From assembly GCF_039830135.1 (NCBI RefSeq), contig NZ_CP156081.1:2838001-2902000 (forward strand): a stretch of 64,000 nucleotides of DNA, read 5' to 3'. Made by a program: the position numbers and the translations under genes. The stretch is from Defluviimonas sp. SAOS-178_SWC. GTDB taxonomy: Bacteria; Pseudomonadota; Alphaproteobacteria; Rhodobacterales; Rhodobacteraceae. Each line of letters starts with the position of its first letter. The stretch's first letter is position 1. Of the stretch, positions 33,892-42,057 are shown piece by piece. The notes beneath the pieces are model-generated. The model worked only from the letters and a program-made list of their open reading frames with translations, ran no database searches and had not been told where the DNA came from.

Positions 33892-34347
33892 TTACCCCCG
33901 CCGGTCGCGAAAGAACGCGGCAAGCAGCTCCGCCGATTCCCGCGCGCCGATCCCGTCATAGACCTCCGGAACGTGATGGCATTGCGGATGGGAAAACACC
34001 CGCGCGCCATGCGCAACCCCACCGGATTTCGGATCCTCGGCGCCGTAATAAAGGCGACCGATCCGCGCGAAGGAGATCGCCGCAGCGCACATCGGGCAGG
34101 GTTCGAGCGTGACATAGAGATCATGGCCCGGCAGCCGCTCTGACCCCGCAGTCCCGCACGCGGCCCGCAAGGCGAGGATCTCGGCATGCGCGGTCGGATC
34201 GTTGAGCTCCCGCGTCCGGTTGCCGGCCCGGGCGACGATACCGCCATCCGGCGCCACGACGACCGCGCCCACCGGCACCTCGCCCCGCTTCCCCGCCGCC
34301 CGCGCCTCTTCCAGCGCCAGAGCCATATGGCTTTGAAATCCGCTCAT
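33892..34347 (-). CDS. tadA: tRNA-specific adenosine deaminase
   Basis: This 151-residue enzyme converts the wobble adenosine of tRNA-Arg(ACG) to inosine. The zinc site is complete: HAEILAL (His and catalytic Glu) and LEPCPMCAAAISFARI (two Cys). The start MSGFQSHMALALEEA at 34347 fits family length; the upstream open frame is not coding. Confidence 0.93.
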   Translation of the reverse strand: MSGFQSHMALALEEARAAGKRGEVPVGAVVVAPDGGIVARAGNRTRELNDPTAHAEILALRAACGTAGSERLPGHDLYVTLEPCPMCAAAISFARIGRLYYGAEDPKSGGVAHGARVFSHPQCHHVPEVYDGIGARESAELLAAFFRDRRG

Positions 34348-34445
34348 GCCTCCTGATGCCCCGGCCCGCGCCCGCACGCAAGCGCTTCCCCCCCGGCGCG
34401 TTTGACGGTATGAGCCTCGCTTCAGATCAGTCCCGGGGGCCGAAG

Positions 34446-35885
34446 ATGGCGGAAGAGAAGACAGGCGGCGACCGCATCGCCAAGGTGATGGCCCGCGCGG
34501 GCGTCGCCTCGCGCCGCGACGCCGAGAAGATGATCGTAGAGGGCCGGGTGGCGGTGAACGGCGTGACGGTGAAAAGCCCCGCTCTCGACGTCCTGCCGTC
34601 CGACAAGGTGACGCTGGACGGCAAGCCCATCGACGCCCCGCAGCCGGCGCGGCTCTGGCTTTACTACAAGCCCCTCGGCCTCGTGACCTCGGCCAAGGAC
34701 GAAAAGGGCCGCCAGACCGTCTTCGACACCATGCCCGCCGACATGCCGCGGGTGATGAGCGTCGGCCGGCTCGACCTCAATTCCGAAGGGCTGCTTCTTC
34801 TGACCAATGACGGCGCGCTGAAGCGGCGGCTGGAACTGCCGTCGACCGGCTGGCTCAGGAAGTACCGGGTCCGGGTCAACGGCCGCCCGAACGACGCGAC
34901 CTTCGACCCCCTGCGGCGCGGCGTGATCATCGAGGGCGAGGAGTTCCAGCCGATGGAGGTCACGCTCGATGTGCAGAAGGGCGCCAACGCCTGGCTGACG
35001 GTCGGGCTGCGCGAGGGCAAGAACCGCGAGGTCCGCCGGGCGATGGCCGAGGTCGGGCTGATCGTGAACCGGCTGATCCGGGTCAGCTACGGCCCCTTCC
35101 GGCTCAACACGATGAAACCGGGCGACGTGGTCGAGGTGAAGCAGAAGGTGCTGCGCGACCAGCTTGGCGACCGTCCCGCGCAGGACGATGACAAACCGGC
35201 GGCCCGCCGCGACGGGGATCGCAAGCCGCGCATGACGCGCGACGGCAAGCCCGCCAAACCGCGCGCCCCGCGCGAGGGCTCCGACGCACCACGCGACCGC
35301 AAGGCGTTCAAACCGCGCGGGGACCGCCCGACGGACGACCGCAAGCCCCGGGAGGGCGGCAAGCCGTTCCGACCGCGCGCGGCAGCGGCTGCCGGCGGGC
35401 CCGGCGACCGGACGGAAAGCGACCGGCCACGCAAGGCGCGCCCCCCGCGCGACGGCGATCGCCCGTTCAAACCCCGCCAGGTTCGGGACGGCGATGCACC
35501 TGCGCAAGAGAGGGGCGAACGCCCCTTCAAGCCGCGTCCCCCACGCGACGGTGACTCGCTAACCGGCAACCGGCCTTACAAACAGCGGTCTCCACGCGGC
35601 GACGACGCGCCGGCGCGCGGCAAGGGCGACAGGCCCTACAAGGCCCGGCCGCCGCGTGAGGACGCCACCGCGCCGCGCGGCGAGCGCCCGCAAAAGCCGC
35701 GTCCCCCGCGCGACGGTGACGCGGGGCGGCAGGACCGGGGCGGGCCGCGGGGCAAGGGCGGCTCTGGCGGCAAGCCCTTCGCAGGCAAGCCGTCGCCATC
35801 CAGATCCGGCCCCGGCGGCCCGCGCAAGGGCGGCGACCGTCCATCCGGCGGTCCGCGCCGGGGTGGACCCGGCCCGAAGAAGTGA
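34446..35885 (+). CDS. rluB: RluB-type rRNA pseudouridine synthase with long basic repeat tail
   Basis: The first 250 residues form an RsuA/RluB enzyme: an S4 domain (DRIAKVMARAGVASRRDAEK), the catalytic block VGRLDLNSEGLLLLTNDG with the active aspartate, and LREGKNREVRRAMAEVGLIV. The remaining roughly 230 residues are a low-complexity Arg/Lys/Pro/Asp/Gly tail built from variants of DRPFKPRPPRDGD. The expected product modifies 23S rRNA near position 2605. The tail is probably disordered and RNA-binding. ATG 34446 is preferred; ATG 34410 is also in frame. Confidence 0.88.
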   Translation: MAEEKTGGDRIAKVMARAGVASRRDAEKMIVEGRVAVNGVTVKSPALDVLPSDKVTLDGKPIDAPQPARLWLYYKPLGLVTSAKDEKGRQTVFDTMPADMPRVMSVGRLDLNSEGLLLLTNDGALKRRLELPSTGWLRKYRVRVNGRPNDATFDPLRRGVIIEGEEFQPMEVTLDVQKGANAWLTVGLREGKNREVRRAMAEVGLIVNRLIRVSYGPFRLNTMKPGDVVEVKQKVLRDQLGDRPAQDDDKPAARRDGDRKPRMTRDGKPAKPRAPREGSDAPRDRKAFKPRGDRPTDDRKPREGGKPFRPRAAAAAGGPGDRTESDRPRKARPPRDGDRPFKPRQVRDGDAPAQERGERPFKPRPPRDGDSLTGNRPYKQRSPRGDDAPARGKGDRPYKARPPREDATAPRGERPQKPRPPRDGDAGRQDRGGPRGKGGSGGKPFAGKPSPSRSGPGGPRKGGDRPSGGPRRGGPGPKK

Positions 35886-36015
35886 CCGCGGAACCGGCGC
35901 CTCACGTCGCGTAAACCGCGAAATCCCGCCGTTCGACGGGAGGATGCCCCCTCTCGGGGCTTGGCCATTCCCGCGCGCCGTGCCAGTCTGCGGATCGTGG
36001 CCGTAGGGGGTACGG

Positions 36016-36099
36016 ATGACGGAATCCGGGTTGCAGCGTATCGCCTTCAATCTGTTGCTGGCGCTGACGCTTTATGTCGCCCTCACCGGGGGCGGATGA
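36016..36099 (+). CDS. Candidate 27-residue single-helix membrane microprotein
   Basis: The frame begins MTESGLQR, continues with one hydrophobic helix (IAFNLLLALTLYVALT) and ends GGG before TGA. Its stop overlaps the start of the xpaC gene as ATGA, the same coupling used by real operon partners in this window. TAGGGGG lies 6 bases before the ATG. It would be the first gene of the xpaC-telA operon. It is short enough that chance cannot be excluded. Confidence 0.55.
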   Translation: MTESGLQRIAFNLLLALTLYVALTGGG

Positions 36100-36986
36100 T
36101 GGCCGAGCGCTTCAGCGGCAAATACAGCCCCTCCCCGTCCGGCGCGGACCCGGCCCCGCGACCGCAGGGGGCGAGCCGCGCCGAAAAGCGCACCGGCTGG
36201 CTCTTCCTCGTTGCCCTGCCCTTCGCGGTCAAGGCGTTCTTTCAGGACCCCGCCGGACTGACCCGCAACCTCGCCGCCTTCGCCGTTCTGGTGCTCGCCG
36301 CCTGGCTGACGCGTGAAGGCATTCGCGCCGCCGAAGCCTATGCCGCCCGCAGTACCGCGCGGCGTCCGGCGCTGCCGCGCAAGATGATCGGGTCGATCCT
36401 GACCGCGCTCGGCCTTGGGATCGGCGCAGCATCGGGGGGCGAGATGGCCGCACTTCTTCTCGGGCTGACCGGGGCGGCCCTGCATCTTTATGCCTTCGGT
36501 CCCGACCCGACGCGCGACAAGGGCATGGAGGGGATCGACACATTCCAGCAGGACCGCGTCGGCCGCATCGTCGCCGAGGGCGAGGCCTACCTGAAAGAGA
36601 TGCGCGCCGCCGCCGACCGTGCCGGCGACCGCCAGATCACCGCCCGCGTCGACCGTTTCGCCATCACCGCACGCACGCTCTTCCGCACGGTCGAGGAGGA
36701 TCCCCGCGACCTCACCGCCGCTCGGCGCTATCTTGGCGTCTACCTGATGGGCGCGCGCGATGCGACGATCAAGTTTGCGGACCTCTGGACCAAGACCCGC
36801 GATGCCGGCGCAAGGGCGGACTACGAGGCGCTTCTCGACGATCTCGAGACCAATTTCGCCCAACGCACGACCGCCCTTCTGACCGACAACCGCAGCGACC
36901 TCGACATCGAGATCGGCGTCCTGCGCGATCGGCTGAAGCGCGAGGGCGTGCGGCTGGACCCCTATCCCCCGAAGAGTGGAGAGTAA
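36096..36986 (+). CDS. xpaC: XpaC-family (5-bromo-4-chloroindolyl phosphate hydrolysis) protein
   Basis: This protein of about 296 residues has two to three hydrophobic segments in its first half (TGWLFLVALPFAVKAFF near 33-48, AAFAVLVLAAWLT, and SILTALGLGIGAASGGEMAA) and a helical cytosolic second half with DTFQQDRVGRIVAEGEAYLK. XpaC proteins are consistently linked with TelA in tellurite and chemical-stress loci; no enzyme activity is firmly shown. Tandem ATGs at 36096 and 36099 are possible; the first overlaps the upstream microprotein stop. Confidence 0.82.
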   Translation: MMAERFSGKYSPSPSGADPAPRPQGASRAEKRTGWLFLVALPFAVKAFFQDPAGLTRNLAAFAVLVLAAWLTREGIRAAEAYAARSTARRPALPRKMIGSILTALGLGIGAASGGEMAALLLGLTGAALHLYAFGPDPTRDKGMEGIDTFQQDRVGRIVAEGEAYLKEMRAAADRAGDRQITARVDRFAITARTLFRTVEEDPRDLTAARRYLGVYLMGARDATIKFADLWTKTRDAGARADYEALLDDLETNFAQRTTALLTDNRSDLDIEIGVLRDRLKREGVRLDPYPPKSGE

Positions 36987-36987
36987 T

Positions 36988-38169
36988 ATGTCCAATATCC
37001 GCGAAGACGCTGCCAAGGCCCTTGCCGCCGTCGAGGAAGTGACGGCCGTGATCCTGCCCGAACCGGCGAGCGAGGTCGTTCCCCTGCAGGACGCGCCGAA
37101 ACCGCTTGCCGCCGAGATCCGCAAACGCATCGCCGAACTCGACATGACGGATACCGGATCCATCGTGAATTTCGGCTCGGCCGCGCAGGGAGAGTTGCAG
37201 CAGATCAGCCAGGCGATGCTCGCCGACGTGCGCAACAAGGATGTGGGCCCGGCGGGCGACAGCTTGCGCGATATCGTGACGACGATCCGGGGGTTTTCGG
37301 TCTCCGAACTCGATGTGCGGCGGAAACTCTCCTGGTGGGAACGGCTTCTGGGGCGCACCGCGCCCTTCGCAAAGTTCCTTGCGCGGTTCGAAAGCGTGCA
37401 GGGCCAGATCGACAAGATTACCGGCGACCTGCTGACGCACGAGCATAAATTGCTGAAGGATATCAAATCCCTCGACGTGCTTTATGAGAAGACGCTGAAC
37501 TTCTACGACGAACTCGCGCTTTACATCGCGGCGGGCGAGGCGAAGATCGCGGACCTGGATGCGACCGGGATTCCGGCGAAGGAAGCCGCCGTCGAGAAGG
37601 CGCCCGAGGCCGACAAGGTGATGGCGGCGCAGGAGCTGCGCGACCTGCGATCCGCCCGCGACGATCTGGAGCGGCGGGTGCATGACCTCAAGCTCACAAG
37701 GCAGGTGACGATGCAGTCGTTGCCCTCGATCCGGCTGGTGCAGGAAAACGACAAGAGCCTTGTGACCAAGATCAATTCGACGCTGGTCAACACCGTGCCG
37801 CTTTGGGAAACCCAGCTTGCGCAGGCCGTGACGATCCAGCGGTCAGCCGAGGCGGCCGGCGCGGTTCGCGAGGCCAACGACCTGACCAACGAGCTTCTGA
37901 CCGCGAACGCGAAGAACCTTCGCCAAGCCAATGAAATCGTTCGAACCGAGATGGAGCGTGGCGTATTCGACATCGAGGCGGTGAAGGCCGCCAATGCCGA
38001 GCTGATCGGCACCATCGAAGACAGCCTGCGCATCGCCGACGAGGGCAAGCGCAAGCGCGCCGCGGCCGAGGCCGACCTGAAGAAGATGGAGGCCGACCTG
38101 CGCGATACGCTCGCCGCCGCCAGGGCACGGGCGACCGGCACGGGCGCCAACCTCGGGACCAGCGTCTGA
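36988..38169 (+). CDS. telA: TelA-family toxic anion resistance protein
   Basis: This 393-residue cytosolic, largely alpha-helical protein matches TelA/KlaA: RIAELDMTDTGSIVNFGSAA at about residue 45, SWWERLLGRTAPFAKFLARF, and a C-terminal coiled-coil-rich region. The family gives tellurite and toxic-anion resistance in some hosts by an unknown mechanism. GGAGAG precedes ATG 36988, one base after the xpaC stop. It is central to a conserved stress operon. Confidence 0.88.
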   Translation: MSNIREDAAKALAAVEEVTAVILPEPASEVVPLQDAPKPLAAEIRKRIAELDMTDTGSIVNFGSAAQGELQQISQAMLADVRNKDVGPAGDSLRDIVTTIRGFSVSELDVRRKLSWWERLLGRTAPFAKFLARFESVQGQIDKITGDLLTHEHKLLKDIKSLDVLYEKTLNFYDELALYIAAGEAKIADLDATGIPAKEAAVEKAPEADKVMAAQELRDLRSARDDLERRVHDLKLTRQVTMQSLPSIRLVQENDKSLVTKINSTLVNTVPLWETQLAQAVTIQRSAEAAGAVREANDLTNELLTANAKNLRQANEIVRTEMERGVFDIEAVKAANAELIGTIEDSLRIADEGKRKRAAAEADLKKMEADLRDTLAAARARATGTGANLGTSV

Positions 38170-38173
38170 GATC

Positions 38174-39130
38174 ATGCGCGCCAGCCTTCTCCCCCGGCTT
38201 TTCCTTATCCCCGTCCTGCTGGCGGCACTGGCCGGCTGCGACACGACGGCGGGCTTCGGATCGGGGTCCGCCAGTCAGTTCCCCCGCGACGTGGCGCCGC
38301 CGGAGCCGGTCGTGACCGAACCCTCTGCCGCGACCCGCGCGGCGCGGGATTATTATGCCAGGGTCGAAGCCAATTACTTCGCCCAGGACCTTCTGCGGGC
38401 CGATGGCGGCGGCAGCGACACGCCGTTCACCGCGCGGGATCTGGCCGAGAACTTCATCCGGATCGCCTTCTACGACGAATTCGCCGAACGCGACGGGCAA
38501 CTCATCCAGCAGTCGGTGGAGAACCGCCTGCACCGCTGGCAGGAGCCGATCCGGCTCGACGTCGAATTCGGCTCCTCCATCCCCGCCGATCAGCGCGCCC
38601 GCGACCGGGCCGAGATCGCGGCCTATGTCATGCGGCTCTCCTCGCTCACCGGCCTGCCGATGCGGATGAGCGGCTGGCGCCCCAATCACTCGGTGTTGAT
38701 CCTCAATTCCGACGAACGCAAGACCGCCGCCGCCCGCATCGCGGCCCTCGCGCCCGCAACCGGCGCGGCGGCGATCCGCTCGGTGACGGATATGGCGCCG
38801 GAGACGTACTGCACCGTCTTTTCCTTCACCCCCGGCCGAACGGCGACCTATACCCGCGCGATCACCGTGATCCGGGGGGAGTTGCCCGAGCGGATGCGCC
38901 TGGCCTGCATCCACGAGGAACTGGCGCAAAGCCTCGGCCTCGTGGCCGATTACCCCCGTGCGCGCCCCTCGATCTTCAACGACAACGAAGAATTCGCGCT
39001 GCTGACACGGCAGGACGAGATGATGCTGAAGATGCTCTACGATCCGCGGCTCCGGCCCGGCATGACGCTGAATGAGGCGCGCCCGATCGTCGAGGTGATG
39101 GCGGCAGAGTTGGCGGGCGGCGAGAGCTGA
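38174..39130 (+). CDS. DUF2927 lipoprotein
   Basis: This 318-residue protein has a lipoprotein signal (LFLIPVLLAALAGC, lipidated Cys22) and a DUF2927 domain over about residues 80-310. Typical features are FTARDLAENFIRIAFYDEF, RLACIHEELAQSLGLVADYP with a possible metal-binding HEE, and FALLTRQDEMMLKMLYDPRL. It is presumably anchored in the envelope and may be a degenerate zinc protease. It sits 4 bases after telA and is cotranscribed. Confidence 0.8.
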   Translation: MRASLLPRLFLIPVLLAALAGCDTTAGFGSGSASQFPRDVAPPEPVVTEPSAATRAARDYYARVEANYFAQDLLRADGGGSDTPFTARDLAENFIRIAFYDEFAERDGQLIQQSVENRLHRWQEPIRLDVEFGSSIPADQRARDRAEIAAYVMRLSSLTGLPMRMSGWRPNHSVLILNSDERKTAAARIAALAPATGAAAIRSVTDMAPETYCTVFSFTPGRTATYTRAITVIRGELPERMRLACIHEELAQSLGLVADYPRARPSIFNDNEEFALLTRQDEMMLKMLYDPRLRPGMTLNEARPIVEVMAAELAGGES

Positions 39131-39148
39131 CCGAAACAGGAGGTTGAT

Positions 39149-40261
39149 ATGGGTATTCTCGATTTTCTGACGGGCGAGTTCATCGACGTCATTCACTGGG
39201 TGGACGACACCCGCGACACCATGGTCTGGCGGTTCGAGCGCGAGGGCCACGCGATCAAGTACGGCGCCAAGCTGACGGTGCGCGAGGGTCAGGCAGCGGT
39301 CTTCGTGCACGAGGGGCAGATCGCCGATGTCTTCTCTCCCGGTCTCTACCTTCTGGAGACCAACAACATGCCGATCCTGACGACGCTCCAGCATTGGGAT
39401 CACGGCTTCCAGTCGCCGTTCAAGTCCGAGATCTATTTCGTCAACACGACGCGCTTCACCGATCAGAAATGGGGCACCAAGAACCCGATCATCGCCCGTG
39501 ACCCGGAATTCGGGCCGGTGCGCCTCAGGGCCTACGGGACTTACGTCATGCGGGTTTCCGACCCGGCGAAGTTTCTCTCTCAAATCGTTGGCACGGATGG
39601 AGAATTCACTGCTGATGAGATCAGCTTCCAGATCCGCAACATCATCGTGCAGGAGTTTTCGCGGGTCATCGCCTCGTCCGGGATCCCGGTCCTCGACATG
39701 GCGGCGAACACCGCCGACCTTGGCAAGATCGTCGCCAAGGCGATCACGCCCGCCATCGCGGCCTATGGGCTGGAGATTCCGGAATTCTACATCGAAAACA
39801 TCAGCTTGCCAGACGCCGTTGAAGCGGCGCTCGACAAGCGGACCTCGATGGGGATCGTCGGCGACCTGAATCGCTACATGCAGTATTCCGCCGCCGAGGC
39901 GATGGGCCGGGGCGAAGGCACGGCCGGGGCCACGATGGGCGCCGGCGTCGGCGCCGGGATCGGCATGGCGATGGGCGCGCAGATTGGGCCCTGGGGGGCG
40001 GCGCCACAGGCGGCCCCGTCGGCGGTACCACCCCCGCCCCCGCCGCCACCGGTCGAAAAGGTCTGGCATCTCGCGCGGTCGGGCACCGTTGACGGTCCTT
40101 ATGGCCGCGGGCATCTCGGGCGACTCGTCACCGATGGCAGCTTCACCCGCGAGACGCTGGTCTGGGCGCCGGGTCAGGACGGGTGGAAGCCCGCCGGCGA
40201 CATCGACGAACTGGCGCAGCTGTTCACCGTGATGCCGCCTCCGCCGCCACCGGCCGGCTGA
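39149..40261 (+). CDS. SPFH (virion-core-protein-like) protein with C-terminal GYF_2 domain
   Basis: This 370-residue protein has an SPFH/band-7-like domain (about 30-250) with AAVFVHEGQIADVFSPGLYL, YMQYSAAEAMGRGEG at its end, a Gly-rich hinge, a polyproline run, and a GYF_2-like C-terminus (VWHLARSGTVDGPYGRGHLG, VWAPGQDGWKPA). SPFH proteins form membrane scaffolds and GYF domains bind proline-rich partners. AGGAGG precedes the start by 5 bases. It is fourth in the xpaC-telA operon. Confidence 0.85.
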   Translation: MGILDFLTGEFIDVIHWVDDTRDTMVWRFEREGHAIKYGAKLTVREGQAAVFVHEGQIADVFSPGLYLLETNNMPILTTLQHWDHGFQSPFKSEIYFVNTTRFTDQKWGTKNPIIARDPEFGPVRLRAYGTYVMRVSDPAKFLSQIVGTDGEFTADEISFQIRNIIVQEFSRVIASSGIPVLDMAANTADLGKIVAKAITPAIAAYGLEIPEFYIENISLPDAVEAALDKRTSMGIVGDLNRYMQYSAAEAMGRGEGTAGATMGAGVGAGIGMAMGAQIGPWGAAPQAAPSAVPPPPPPPPVEKVWHLARSGTVDGPYGRGHLGRLVTDGSFTRETLVWAPGQDGWKPAGDIDELAQLFTVMPPPPPPAG

Positions 40262-40271
40262 GCCACACGCC

Positions 40272-41423
40272 ATGCAGGCCCCGACCCAAGCTCCGGCGGA
40301 GGAACACCGCTTCCCCTGCCCGCAATGCGGCGCCGACTTGCGCTTCGCGCCCGGAGAGGGCCGGCTGATCTGCGATCATTGCGGGCACGAGGAGCCGGTC
40401 AGCGCCTCGGGGCGCACCCACCAGCCGATCCCCGAAACCGATTTCCGCCGGGGTGTCGAGGCTGCACTTCCCGATAGCGAGATCGAGGTCGCGCGCTACT
40501 CGAAATGCCCCAATTGCGGCGCCGAGGTGGAATTCGACCCCGCCGTCCACGCCGCCGAATGTCCGTTCTGCGCCACGCCGGTCGTCGCCGATACCGGCGA
40601 GGGACGGCACATCAAGCCGAAAGGCCTCGCCCCGTTCGTCCTGACCGAGCCCGAGGCGCGGAAGGCGATGACGAACTGGCTCGGCTCCTTGTGGCTCGCG
40701 CCTTCGGGTCTGGCGGACTATGCCCGCAAGGGCCGCGCGATGCAGGGCATCTACGTGCCGTACTGGACCTTCGACGCCGACACCGCCTCCGCCTATCGGG
40801 GCCTGCGCGGCACCGTCTATTACGTGACCGAACAGGTCCGCGTCCGCGATCCGAAAGGCGGGGTCCGCACGGAAAGGCGCCAGGTCCCGAAGATCCGCTG
40901 GACGCCGGTCGCGGGCCGCGTCGCGCGGTTTTTCGACGATGTGCTGGTGCTCGCCTCGCGGTCGCTGCCTCAGGGCTACACCGAGGCGCTTCTGCCGTGG
41001 GATCTTTCGCGGCTGGAACCCTACCGACCGGAATTCCTCGCCGGGTTTCGGGCCGAAGGCTACACGGTCAGCCTCGAAGACGGCATGTCGAATGCCCGCG
41101 CCCAGATGGACCGCATGATCGAACGCGACGTGCGTTTCGACATCGGCGGCGACCGGCAGGAGATTCAGTCCATCGAGACAAGGGTTTCGGACGTGACCTT
41201 CAAGCACATCCTGCTCCCGGTCTGGAGCGCCGCCTACCGATACCGGGGCAAGAGCTACCGGTTCGTCGTCAACGGACAGACCGGGAAGGTCAAGGGCGAG
41301 CGGCCCTGGTCGCCGGCCAAGATCGCCATCGCGGTGATCCTTGGACTTATCCTCGCGATCGTGGCGTTCTTCCTCCTGCAATATGCCGACCAACAGGGAT
41401 ATATCGACCTGCAGAGCTATTGA
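40272..41423 (+). CDS. Double zinc-ribbon protein with C-terminal membrane anchor
   Basis: This 383-residue protein opens with two zinc ribbons: CPQCGADL..CDHCGHEE (about residues 16-41) and CPNCGAEVEF..CPFCATPV (about 78-102). A beta-rich middle domain of about 240 residues follows (YVPYWTFDADTASAYRGLRG), and one hydrophobic helix (IAIAVILGLILAIVAFFLLQ) lies near the C-terminus. Database entries for this family are often misnamed as primosomal N' or helicase-like. It probably works with the SPFH protein at the inner membrane. Confidence 0.8.
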   Translation: MQAPTQAPAEEHRFPCPQCGADLRFAPGEGRLICDHCGHEEPVSASGRTHQPIPETDFRRGVEAALPDSEIEVARYSKCPNCGAEVEFDPAVHAAECPFCATPVVADTGEGRHIKPKGLAPFVLTEPEARKAMTNWLGSLWLAPSGLADYARKGRAMQGIYVPYWTFDADTASAYRGLRGTVYYVTEQVRVRDPKGGVRTERRQVPKIRWTPVAGRVARFFDDVLVLASRSLPQGYTEALLPWDLSRLEPYRPEFLAGFRAEGYTVSLEDGMSNARAQMDRMIERDVRFDIGGDRQEIQSIETRVSDVTFKHILLPVWSAAYRYRGKSYRFVVNGQTGKVKGERPWSPAKIAIAVILGLILAIVAFFLLQYADQQGYIDLQSY

Positions 41424-41486
41424 GCCGGCGGGCCGCGCCGAACCCGGAGCGCATGTCCGGGTCGGCCCGCAGTGCGCGTTGCCGGA

Positions 41487-41902
41487 TCAGCTCTTGCCGA
41501 TCGGCACCTTCCGGGACTTCGCGACTTCCGGGGCGGCCCGGGCGACGGTCAGCGTCAGAACCCCGTCCTTGAGGTCTGCGCTGATCTTGCTCTGATCGGC
41601 ATCCGCGGGCAGCCGGAAACTGCGGCTGAAGCTGCCATACTGACGCTCGCTGAAATACCAGGTGTCGCCCTTCTCCTCGCGCTCCTCCTTTTTCTCGCCC
41701 CTCACCGTGACCATACCTTCATCGACAGTCACATCGATGTCCTTCTCTTCGACGCCCGGAAGCTCGATGGCGATGCGGTAGGCCTTGCCGTCCGAGGAGG
41801 CCTCCGAGGCCGGGGCGAGCCATTCGCTGAGACGGGTGCCGAAGTTGCGGAAAGGCTCGTAGAACGACGGCCAGAACGTGCTGGCGGGGGTTTCTCTACC
41901 AT
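41487..41902 (-). pseudogene. Hsp20/alpha-crystallin small heat-shock protein, frameshifted at codon 4-5
   Basis: The alpha-crystallin domain is clear and complete: FYEPFRNFGTRLSEWLAP, YRIAIELPGVEEKDIDVTVD, ERQYGSFSRSFRLPADAD and the edge motif GVLTLTV. The only good start, ATG 41902 with GGAG upstream (M-V-E-K), is in a different frame. Adding one base in the run GAAACCCCCG at about 41888-41896 joins it to TPASTFWPSFYEPF. Without that, no start lies in frame before an upstream TAG. It may be a true loss, a homopolymer sequencing error, or slippage. Confidence 0.8.
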
Positions 41903-42057
41903 TGGAATCTCCAGTTCCATGCTATTTGAGGGAACGGGCGGACCATGCCATCCTTGGGGCCCTGCCGCGTTGACGCGCGTCAAGGCTCTTGATCGTTGCG
42001 ACGACGACGAGGCTCGGGTAAGGGAATGCCGTTTACGCTAACATGAAGGGCCGACCG

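What the first reader, a model, noticed from the sequence alone, without database searches (positions are those of the whole stretch)
36016..41423. Compact stress operon: microprotein, XpaC, TelA, DUF2927 lipoprotein, SPFH-GYF and zinc-ribbon membrane protein
Six genes run in one direction with overlaps or gaps of 1-18 bases. They combine a lipoprotein, a membrane-scaffold SPFH protein with a peptide-binding GYF domain, a double zinc ribbon tethered to the membrane, and the XpaC-TelA pair known from tellurite and toxic-anion loci. The set spans envelope to cytosol and suggests one physical complex. TelA and XpaC are known only by phenotype, and I know of no described mechanism for the full set.
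Basis: partly seen in the sequence, partly recalled or inferred. Interest (0 to 1): 0.75.

Follow-up and report, generated by a model that had tools for sequence, protein, structure and literature searches.

The report
Conserved TelA–XpaC–SPFH envelope operon
A six-gene bacterial locus, kept in nearly every relative sampled, seems to encode an envelope-stress machine; it includes a tiny membrane protein found beside XpaC wherever this was checked, and a surface lipoprotein predicted to be shaped like a matrix protease but without its zinc-binding residues.

Summary
In detail: six genes at 36016-41423, one strand, overlapping or 1-18 bases apart. Of 61 genomes of the order, 60 have TelA; in 59 of these SPFH lies on the same strand within 3.5 kb, and all five larger genes are in this order in 47 of 59 stretches. 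Spacing is tight in only 17 of the 47. (2) DUF2927 has a confident predicted matrix-metalloprotease fold, but HExxHxxGxxH reads EExxQxxGxxN: a pseudo-protease lipoprotein. (3) SPFH–zinc ribbon is an older pair, adjacent in 12 of 15 loci outside the family. No PspA lies in the operon, and TelA does not match PspA. Conserved proline-rich segments are in SPFH itself, so GYF docking onto another member is not supported. Best reading: an envelope-stress assembly that works like, but is not, B. subtilis PspA-YdjGHI. No interaction or function was tested.

The parts
36016..36099 (+). 27-aa single-TM microprotein (Gln-Arg/Lys near the start, then hydrophobic, Gly-rich end); its stop overlaps the XpaC start
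   Evidence: upstream of XpaC in 56 of 56 loci, control and in-frame selection, moved with XpaC in 4 of 4 genomes of genus g7
36096..36986 (+). XpaC (PF10112), about 3-4 hydrophobic segments in its N-terminal half by family-averaged hydropathy; likely true start 36099 (MAERF)
36988..38169 (+). TelA (PF05816), no TM segment, all-helical in a low-confidence model
38174..39130 (+). DUF2927 (PF11150) lipoprotein; predicted metzincin/matrixin fold (aligned residues about 93-292) with zinc ligands replaced
38912..38947 (+). degenerate metzincin motif of DUF2927, residues 247-258 H-E-E-L-A-Q-S-L-G-L-V-A (family form from residue 248: EExxQxxGxxN)
   Evidence: register assigned by spacing, not by a residue-level structural alignment
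39149..40261 (+). SPFH (PF13421 Band_7_1) + Pro-rich linker + GYF_2 (PF14237) + Pro-rich C-terminal tail
40272..41423 (+). double zinc ribbon protein with conserved middle domain and C-terminal TM (residues about 351-369)

Best explanation
The locus encodes one envelope-stress assembly of this order (Rhodobacterales by the names of near relatives), made by joining two older modules, XpaC-TelA and SPFH-zinc ribbon, and adding a periplasmic lipoprotein. Proposed working: the DUF2927 lipoprotein, a matrixin-shaped protein without zinc ligands, binds a peptide-like ligand outside the inner membrane (envelope protein or wall peptide) instead of cutting it; XpaC with its 27-aa TM subunit forms the inner-membrane part; the zinc-ribbon protein is tail-anchored in the membrane and holds the soluble SPFH-GYF oligomer, much as YdjG/YdjH hold YdjI in Bacillus; TelA, a soluble helical protein, is the recruited effector, in the position PspA has there. 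GYF domains probably clasp the proline-rich tails of neighbouring SPFH subunits and so set the assembly state. Shown here: gene set, order, conservation, microprotein-XpaC bond, domain content. Predicted here: the fold of DUF2927 and, by spacing, its lost motif. Inferred: every protein-protein contact, the sensing role, and the stress output.
Against: No expression, interaction or mutant data for this operon. Conserved order inside one family partly reflects shared descent. Only 17 of 47 complete stretches have all gaps of 200 bases or less; the gap exceeds 200 in 15 of 56 DUF2927-SPFH pairs and 27 of 53 SPFH-ZnR pairs, mostly with other ORFs inserted, against 1 of 56 for XpaC-TelA and 0 of 56 for TelA-DUF2927. 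In 7 of 60 TelA genomes ZnR is not collinear with TelA on the fetched stretch (6, one of them at a contig end and one on the opposite strand, plus G048); in 4 XpaC is elsewhere; DUF2927 was not detected in 3. TelA beside Band_7_1 was not seen in the 192 genomes of the phylum sample outside the family (one, G133, cannot be judged), and my TelA profile hit in 1 of 80 SPFH loci. The TelA model is poor (pLDDT 57.4), so its role as effector has no structural support. TelA and PspA profiles do not match.
Confidence: 0.45

Rival explanations
1. Two independent modules (XpaC-TelA with DUF2927, and SPFH-ZnR) are neighbours for co-expression only; there is no single complex.
For: Each pair occurs without the other elsewhere: TelA beside an XpaC-like membrane protein (by eye) with no SPFH in the stretch (L113, L116), SPFH-ZnR without TelA. 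Insertions cluster before SPFH (15 of 56) and before ZnR (27 of 53), hardly within XpaC-TelA-DUF2927 (1 of 56, 0 of 56). In 4 genomes XpaC, and in several ZnR, is encoded elsewhere.
Against: 59 of 59 stretches keep TelA and SPFH together; the one genome lacking TelA also lacks XpaC, ZnR and a Band_7_1 match over cut-off; a separate TelA-SPFH neighbourhood in Oligoflexia.
Confidence: 0.28
2. Tellurite/toxic-anion resistance operon proper: the genes act on oxyanions or their redox damage, with TelA as the main factor and the others as helpers.
For: telA of Rhodobacter sphaeroides is listed among chromosomal tellurite-resistance elements (review PMC6955997, passage; the original, O'Gara 1997, is not held). 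A gene family with a cytochrome b561 member (PF01292) sits between SPFH and ZnR in 14 of 60 stretches.
Against: Presence in 60 of 61 genomes does not look like an occasional resistance trait; the Listeria lmo1967 mutant is affected more for nisin than for tellurite; Pfam shows no transporter or reductase among the six proteins.
Confidence: 0.2
3. TelA is a PspA/ESCRT-III-type membrane remodeller, so the locus is a true phage-shock system with a diverged PspA.
For: Partners of the same kind as in PspA-YdjGHI; TelA has no TM and is helical in a poor model; PspA itself is found in only 23 of 61 of these genomes, never closer than about 24 kb to the operon.
Against: Profile-profile TelA vs PspA: probability 0.6%, E 0.1; the TelA model is too poor for a fold test.
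Confidence: 0.05

Closest known systems
Bacillus subtilis PspA-YdjG-YdjH-YdjI (phage-shock/SPFH complex; PMC8581546, sections 5 and 7 read; PMC11237479, section 19 read)
   Same: A soluble SPFH protein plus a membrane protein with two zinc ribbons, needed to bring a soluble helical stress protein to the membrane
   Different: Effector here would be TelA, not PspA; no TPM-domain protein among the six; extra XpaC, microprotein and DUF2927 lipoprotein; the module after SPFH is GYF, not a zinc ribbon
XpaC-TelA pairs of Gram-positives (Listeria lmo1966-1967, Lactococcus llmg_1115-1116; PMC12791056 and PMC3139573, passages)
   Same: Adjacent XpaC and TelA genes linked to envelope stress
   Different: No SPFH, ZnR or DUF2927 is mentioned with them in the passages seen; whether they have a microprotein was not tested
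Rhodobacter sphaeroides telA tellurite locus (named in PMC6955997, passage)
   Same: Gene of the same name in what is probably the same family of bacteria; orthology not tested
   Different: Only telA is named in the passage seen; the wider operon is not mentioned there
Band-7/SHOCT, DUF4178, DUF350, spermidine-synthase operons (PMC11237479 section 19)
   Same: Band_7_1 gene beside a zinc-ribbon protein (seen here in L128, L167)
   Different: The zinc-ribbon partner is a DUF4178 protein; only its zinc ribbon matches ours
Matrixins (MMPs, karilysin) and other metzincins
   Same: Predicted fold of DUF2927 residues about 93-292
   Different: HExxHxxGxxH (recalled) replaced by EExxQxxGxxN; a lipoprotein; no protease activity expected

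Membership tests
TelA family PF05816 | match above curated cut-off over the whole domain | tested here: met
   356 bits vs 30, profile 5-331 of 332
XpaC family PF10112 | match above curated cut-off | tested here: met
   85.4 bits vs 29.8
Phage-shock (PSP) system | a PspA/IM30 (PF04012) protein in the system | tested here: not met
   none among the six proteins; the genome's own PF04012 match is about 170 kb away; TelA-PspA profile probability 0.6%
YdjGHI-type SPFH complex | SPFH protein without a TM | tested here: met
   PF13421 341 bits; no TM in 59 of 60
YdjGHI-type SPFH complex | membrane protein with two zinc ribbons beside it | tested here: met
   four or more CxxC in 54 of 55, one TM in 55 of 55
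YdjGHI-type SPFH complex | zinc-ribbon protein homologous to YdjG over its full length | not tested
   the B. subtilis sequence was not fetched; a homologue in a Bacillota MAG was found (L187)
YdjGHI-type SPFH complex | TPM-domain YdjH partner | tested here: not met
   no TPM domain among the six proteins; the rest of the genome was not searched
Metzincin/matrixin peptidases | fold | tested here: met
Metzincin/matrixin peptidases | zinc motif HExxHxxGxxH/D (recalled) | tested here: not met
   EExxQxxG in 79 of 80 rows, with N 60, A 18, D 2 at the third ligand; EExxQxxG in 14 of 14 relatives outside the operon that were recovered, of 15 fetched
Metzincin/matrixin peptidases | proteolytic activity | not testable with these tools
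   needs biochemistry
Lipoproteins (type II signal peptide) | N-terminal hydrophobic stretch plus lipobox Cys | tested here: met
   window LAGC with Cys at residue 22; lipobox pattern in 48 of 57 operon DUF2927 proteins, so 9 without
   PPP in SPFH itself 58/60; XpaC 2/56, TelA 1/60, DUF2927 14/57, ZnR 4/55

The most novel reading that the evidence does not exclude
A previously undescribed trans-envelope stress machine of this order in which TelA takes the place that PspA has in Bacillus, XpaC is an obligate two-subunit membrane protein with a 27-aa partner, and a catalytically dead, zinc-less matrixin lipoprotein is the outside sensor; the DUF2927 family as a whole would be a new class of bacterial pseudo-metzincins.
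Probability: 0.33. Interest if true: 0.8.

Novelty: new variant of a known kind. Interest (0 to 1): 0.6.

Why it matters
TelA and XpaC are known mainly by phenotype. This locus gives them fixed partners in a family of bacteria with laboratory strains and makes concrete tests possible: does XpaC need its microprotein, does SPFH-ZnR place TelA at the membrane, and what does a protease-shaped but zinc-less lipoprotein bind? It also suggests that SPFH-zinc ribbon is a membrane platform on which different soluble stress proteins (PspA, TelA) are mounted, and it offers a fold and a motif for a domain of unknown function that no paper in the held library mentions.

Tried and rejected
TelA as a hidden PspA: profile probability 0.6%. 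TelA structure: model mean pLDDT 57.4, pTM 0.47, so I did not search folds with it; no conclusion. GYF docking to another operon member: no conserved proline-rich segment there. DUF2927 by sequence alone: a profile search of solved structures gave only two weak unrelated chains (E 0.071 and 0.47), so the fold claim rests on the predicted model. Solved-structure searches with the SPFH and TelA proteins gave nothing below E 0.02. Zinc-ribbon partners of SPFH (53 of 80 loci): apart from L187 the E-values are weak; the one of these that I scanned with Pfam besides L187 (L128) is a DUF4178 protein, and the DUF4178 proteins of L128 and L167 share only the zinc ribbon with ours, so these are probably not orthologues. 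Known sigma-factor and regulator patterns upstream: none clearly enriched. Tandem repeats in 34300-42000: none. A first gene caller (longest ORF) missed known genes in several loci and was replaced. The 257-aa gene beside TelA in L167 has no Pfam hit, so XpaC is not confirmed there. Of the papers in the listings I opened only PMC8581546, PMC11237479, PMC12791056, PMC3139573 and PMC6955997; two searches listed 20 of 103 and 20 of 107 papers. On checking this report against the calls I found that the tight spacing of the window is kept in 17 of 47 complete stretches only; I lowered the best explanation from 0.50 to 0.45, the novel case from 0.35 to 0.33 and interest from 0.62 to 0.60, and raised the two-module rival from 0.25 to 0.28.
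Full report
What is there. Window 36016-41423 holds six co-directional genes: a 27-aa ORF whose stop overlaps the XpaC start, XpaC (PF10112), TelA (PF05816), a DUF2927 (PF11150) lipoprotein, a Band_7_1 SPFH protein with a GYF_2 domain (PF13421, PF14237), and a protein with two zinc ribbons and one C-terminal TM. Gaps after XpaC are 1, 4, 18 and 10 bases. Simple promoter and terminator scans do not stand out from shuffles.

Is it more than this strain? In 61 genomes of the order (all in one family, own genome included), TelA is in 60, XpaC in 60, the zinc-ribbon protein in 60 and Band_7_1 over its cut-off in 60. The genome without (G011) is the same each time. I fetched 60 stretches from 59 genomes and mapped the genes. 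Leaving out the two stretches of G048, where TelA-DUF2927 and SPFH-ZnR lie on different contigs, 59 stretches remain, the window included: 47 have all five larger genes in this order, 6 lack ZnR in the collinear run (elsewhere in the genome, on the opposite strand in one, past a contig end in one), 3 lack DUF2927, 3 lack XpaC. The genes present are collinear in all 59, and TelA and SPFH are on one strand within 3.5 kb in all 59. The spacing is less strict: all gaps are 200 bases or less in 17 of the 47. Gaps over 200 occur in 1 of 56 XpaC-TelA pairs, 0 of 56 TelA-DUF2927, 15 of 56 DUF2927-SPFH and 27 of 53 SPFH-ZnR, mostly with other ORFs inside, up to about 3.6 kb. The commonest insertion is a family with a cytochrome b561 member, between SPFH and ZnR in 14 of 60 stretches.

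The microprotein is real. Upstream of XpaC, 56 of 56 loci where XpaC was found by tblastn (window included) have a 22-31 aa hydrophobic ORF that ends -7 to +5 bases from the XpaC start (five begin with a non-ATG start). The picker was written knowing the expected answer, so I ran it elsewhere: 55 of 56 for XpaC against 1 of 60 (TelA), 3 of 57 (DUF2927), 0 of 60 (SPFH), 1 of 54 (ZnR) and 17 of 3050 random positions. Substitutions favour the reading frame: pN<pS in 328 of 370 equal-length pairs, against 215 and 17 of 370 in the shifted frames (pairs are not independent, and mean pS of 0.64 means that many are near saturation). Aligned column 14 is Leu in 56 of 56, column 7 Gln in 43, column 8 Lys or Arg in 40, column 11 Tyr or Phe in 56. 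A natural experiment follows: in the four sampled genomes of genus g7, XpaC is not beside TelA. With the picker slightly relaxed, a microprotein of the same type (QRLSF-like core) stands before the relocated XpaC in 4 of 4: its stop overlaps a possible XpaC start in one, lies about 10 bases before the first XpaC start in two, and in the fourth (L210) the XpaC start is not resolved. So the microprotein belongs to XpaC rather than to the operon at large.

Two older modules. In 200 genomes of the phylum, Band_7_1 at E<1e-60 occurs in 23 (8 of them this family), and TelA over cut-off in 28. Outside the family four genomes have both, none shown adjacent: two on different contigs with both genes well inside them, one about 130 kb apart, and one (G133) on two short contigs, where adjacency cannot be judged. 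Of the 15 such Band_7_1 loci outside the family, 12 have the ZnR gene next to SPFH; one of the other three ends at a contig edge. Eight of the 15, and seven of the 12, come from one genus (g77), so the independent cases are fewer. The module after the SPFH domain varies: GYF, an HTH-like stretch (by eye), SHOCT, or zinc ribbons in a Bacillota MAG. In 80 Band_7_1 loci from named genomes (the best 80 of 593), my TelA profile hit one, an Oligoflexia genome, where TelA and an overlapping small membrane-protein gene stand divergent from Band_7_1-SHOCT, DUF4178, DUF350 and spermidine-synthase genes. That is a single case, but an independent one.

How it may work. In B. subtilis, deletion of ydjG or ydjH abolishes membrane foci of the soluble SPFH protein YdjI and of PspA, and two-hybrid tests link the four proteins (PMC8581546, sections 5 and 7 read). 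XpaC-TelA in Listeria are listed as LiaSR-regulated, and an lmo1967 (TelA) mutant is 4-fold more susceptible to nisin and 2-fold to tellurite (PMC12791056, passages); in Lactococcus the pair appears with ratios 10.3 and 3.44 in a membrane-protein overproduction study (PMC3139573, one passage). Rhodobacter sphaeroides telA is listed as a tellurite-resistance element (PMC6955997, passage). Putting these together, I infer a membrane platform (ZnR + SPFH-GYF) that mounts TelA, coupled by XpaC-microprotein to a periplasmic pseudo-protease sensor. PspA is not part of it: PF04012 is found in 23 of 61 of these genomes, nearest about 24 kb away (G057), and TelA is not PspA-like by profile. The GYF domain sits between two proline-rich segments of SPFH itself (linker 57 of 60, tail 58 of 60), so self-association between subunits is the simplest guess.

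Regulation, noted on the way. TTCCCCCTAG-N18-CCTARRTTT with at most one mismatch occurs in 11 of 61 genomes, once in each, and all 11 sites lie just upstream of this operon; the reversed control pattern has none (places compared). The pattern was derived from these loci, so its presence there is expected; its absence elsewhere in those genomes is the informative part. TTCCCCCT alone is upstream of the microprotein in 20 of 56 loci against 9 of 1220 random windows. A weight matrix ranks the upstream site first in its locus in only 17 of 56, and the window itself does not have it, so it is not a feature of every operon.

Limits. Everything here is sequence and prediction. Shared descent inside one family inflates the counts of conserved order. 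No contact between any two of the proteins has been shown for this operon.

Noticed in passing
L216-L226 (upstream of the operon in 11 genomes); not in the window: Motif TTCCCCCTAG-N18-CCTARRTTT, one copy per genome in 11 of 61 genomes, each upstream of this operon; looks like an operon-specific promoter or regulator site in part of the family.
   Followed up: partly
L034-L093, between SPFH and ZnR: A family of small membrane proteins inserted in 14 of 60 stretches; of two members tested one is cytochrome b561 (PF01292, E 4.5e-9), the shorter one has no hit.
   Followed up: partly
L167:4968-11992: Oligoflexia locus with TelA divergent from Band_7_1-SHOCT, DUF4178, DUF350 and a spermidine synthase.
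   Followed up: partly
L207-L210: Genus g7: XpaC and its microprotein lie away from TelA in 4 genomes; in one of them (G048) the rest of the operon is also split.
   Followed up: yes
L242 (second DUF2927 gene of the window's genome): A second DUF2927 copy in the same genome also has the EExxQ form, so the lost zinc motif looks like a family trait.
   Followed up: partly
window 34356-35885: Pseudouridine-synthase-like ORF just upstream with a long Arg/Pro/Asp-rich tail (named by recall); a relative of its first 260 residues is upstream on the same strand in 42 of 59 stretches, window included.
   Followed up: no
L112, L114, L115: TelA near a lipoprotein that looks substrate-binding/VWA-like (by eye) and a weak XpaC match in other genomes of the class.
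   Followed up: no
L104:7610-8725, L107:3643-4671, L108:7705-8721, L187:2165-3298: The domain after the SPFH part is swapped between lineages (GYF, HTH-like, SHOCT-like, zinc ribbons), hinting at interchangeable adaptors.
   Followed up: partly
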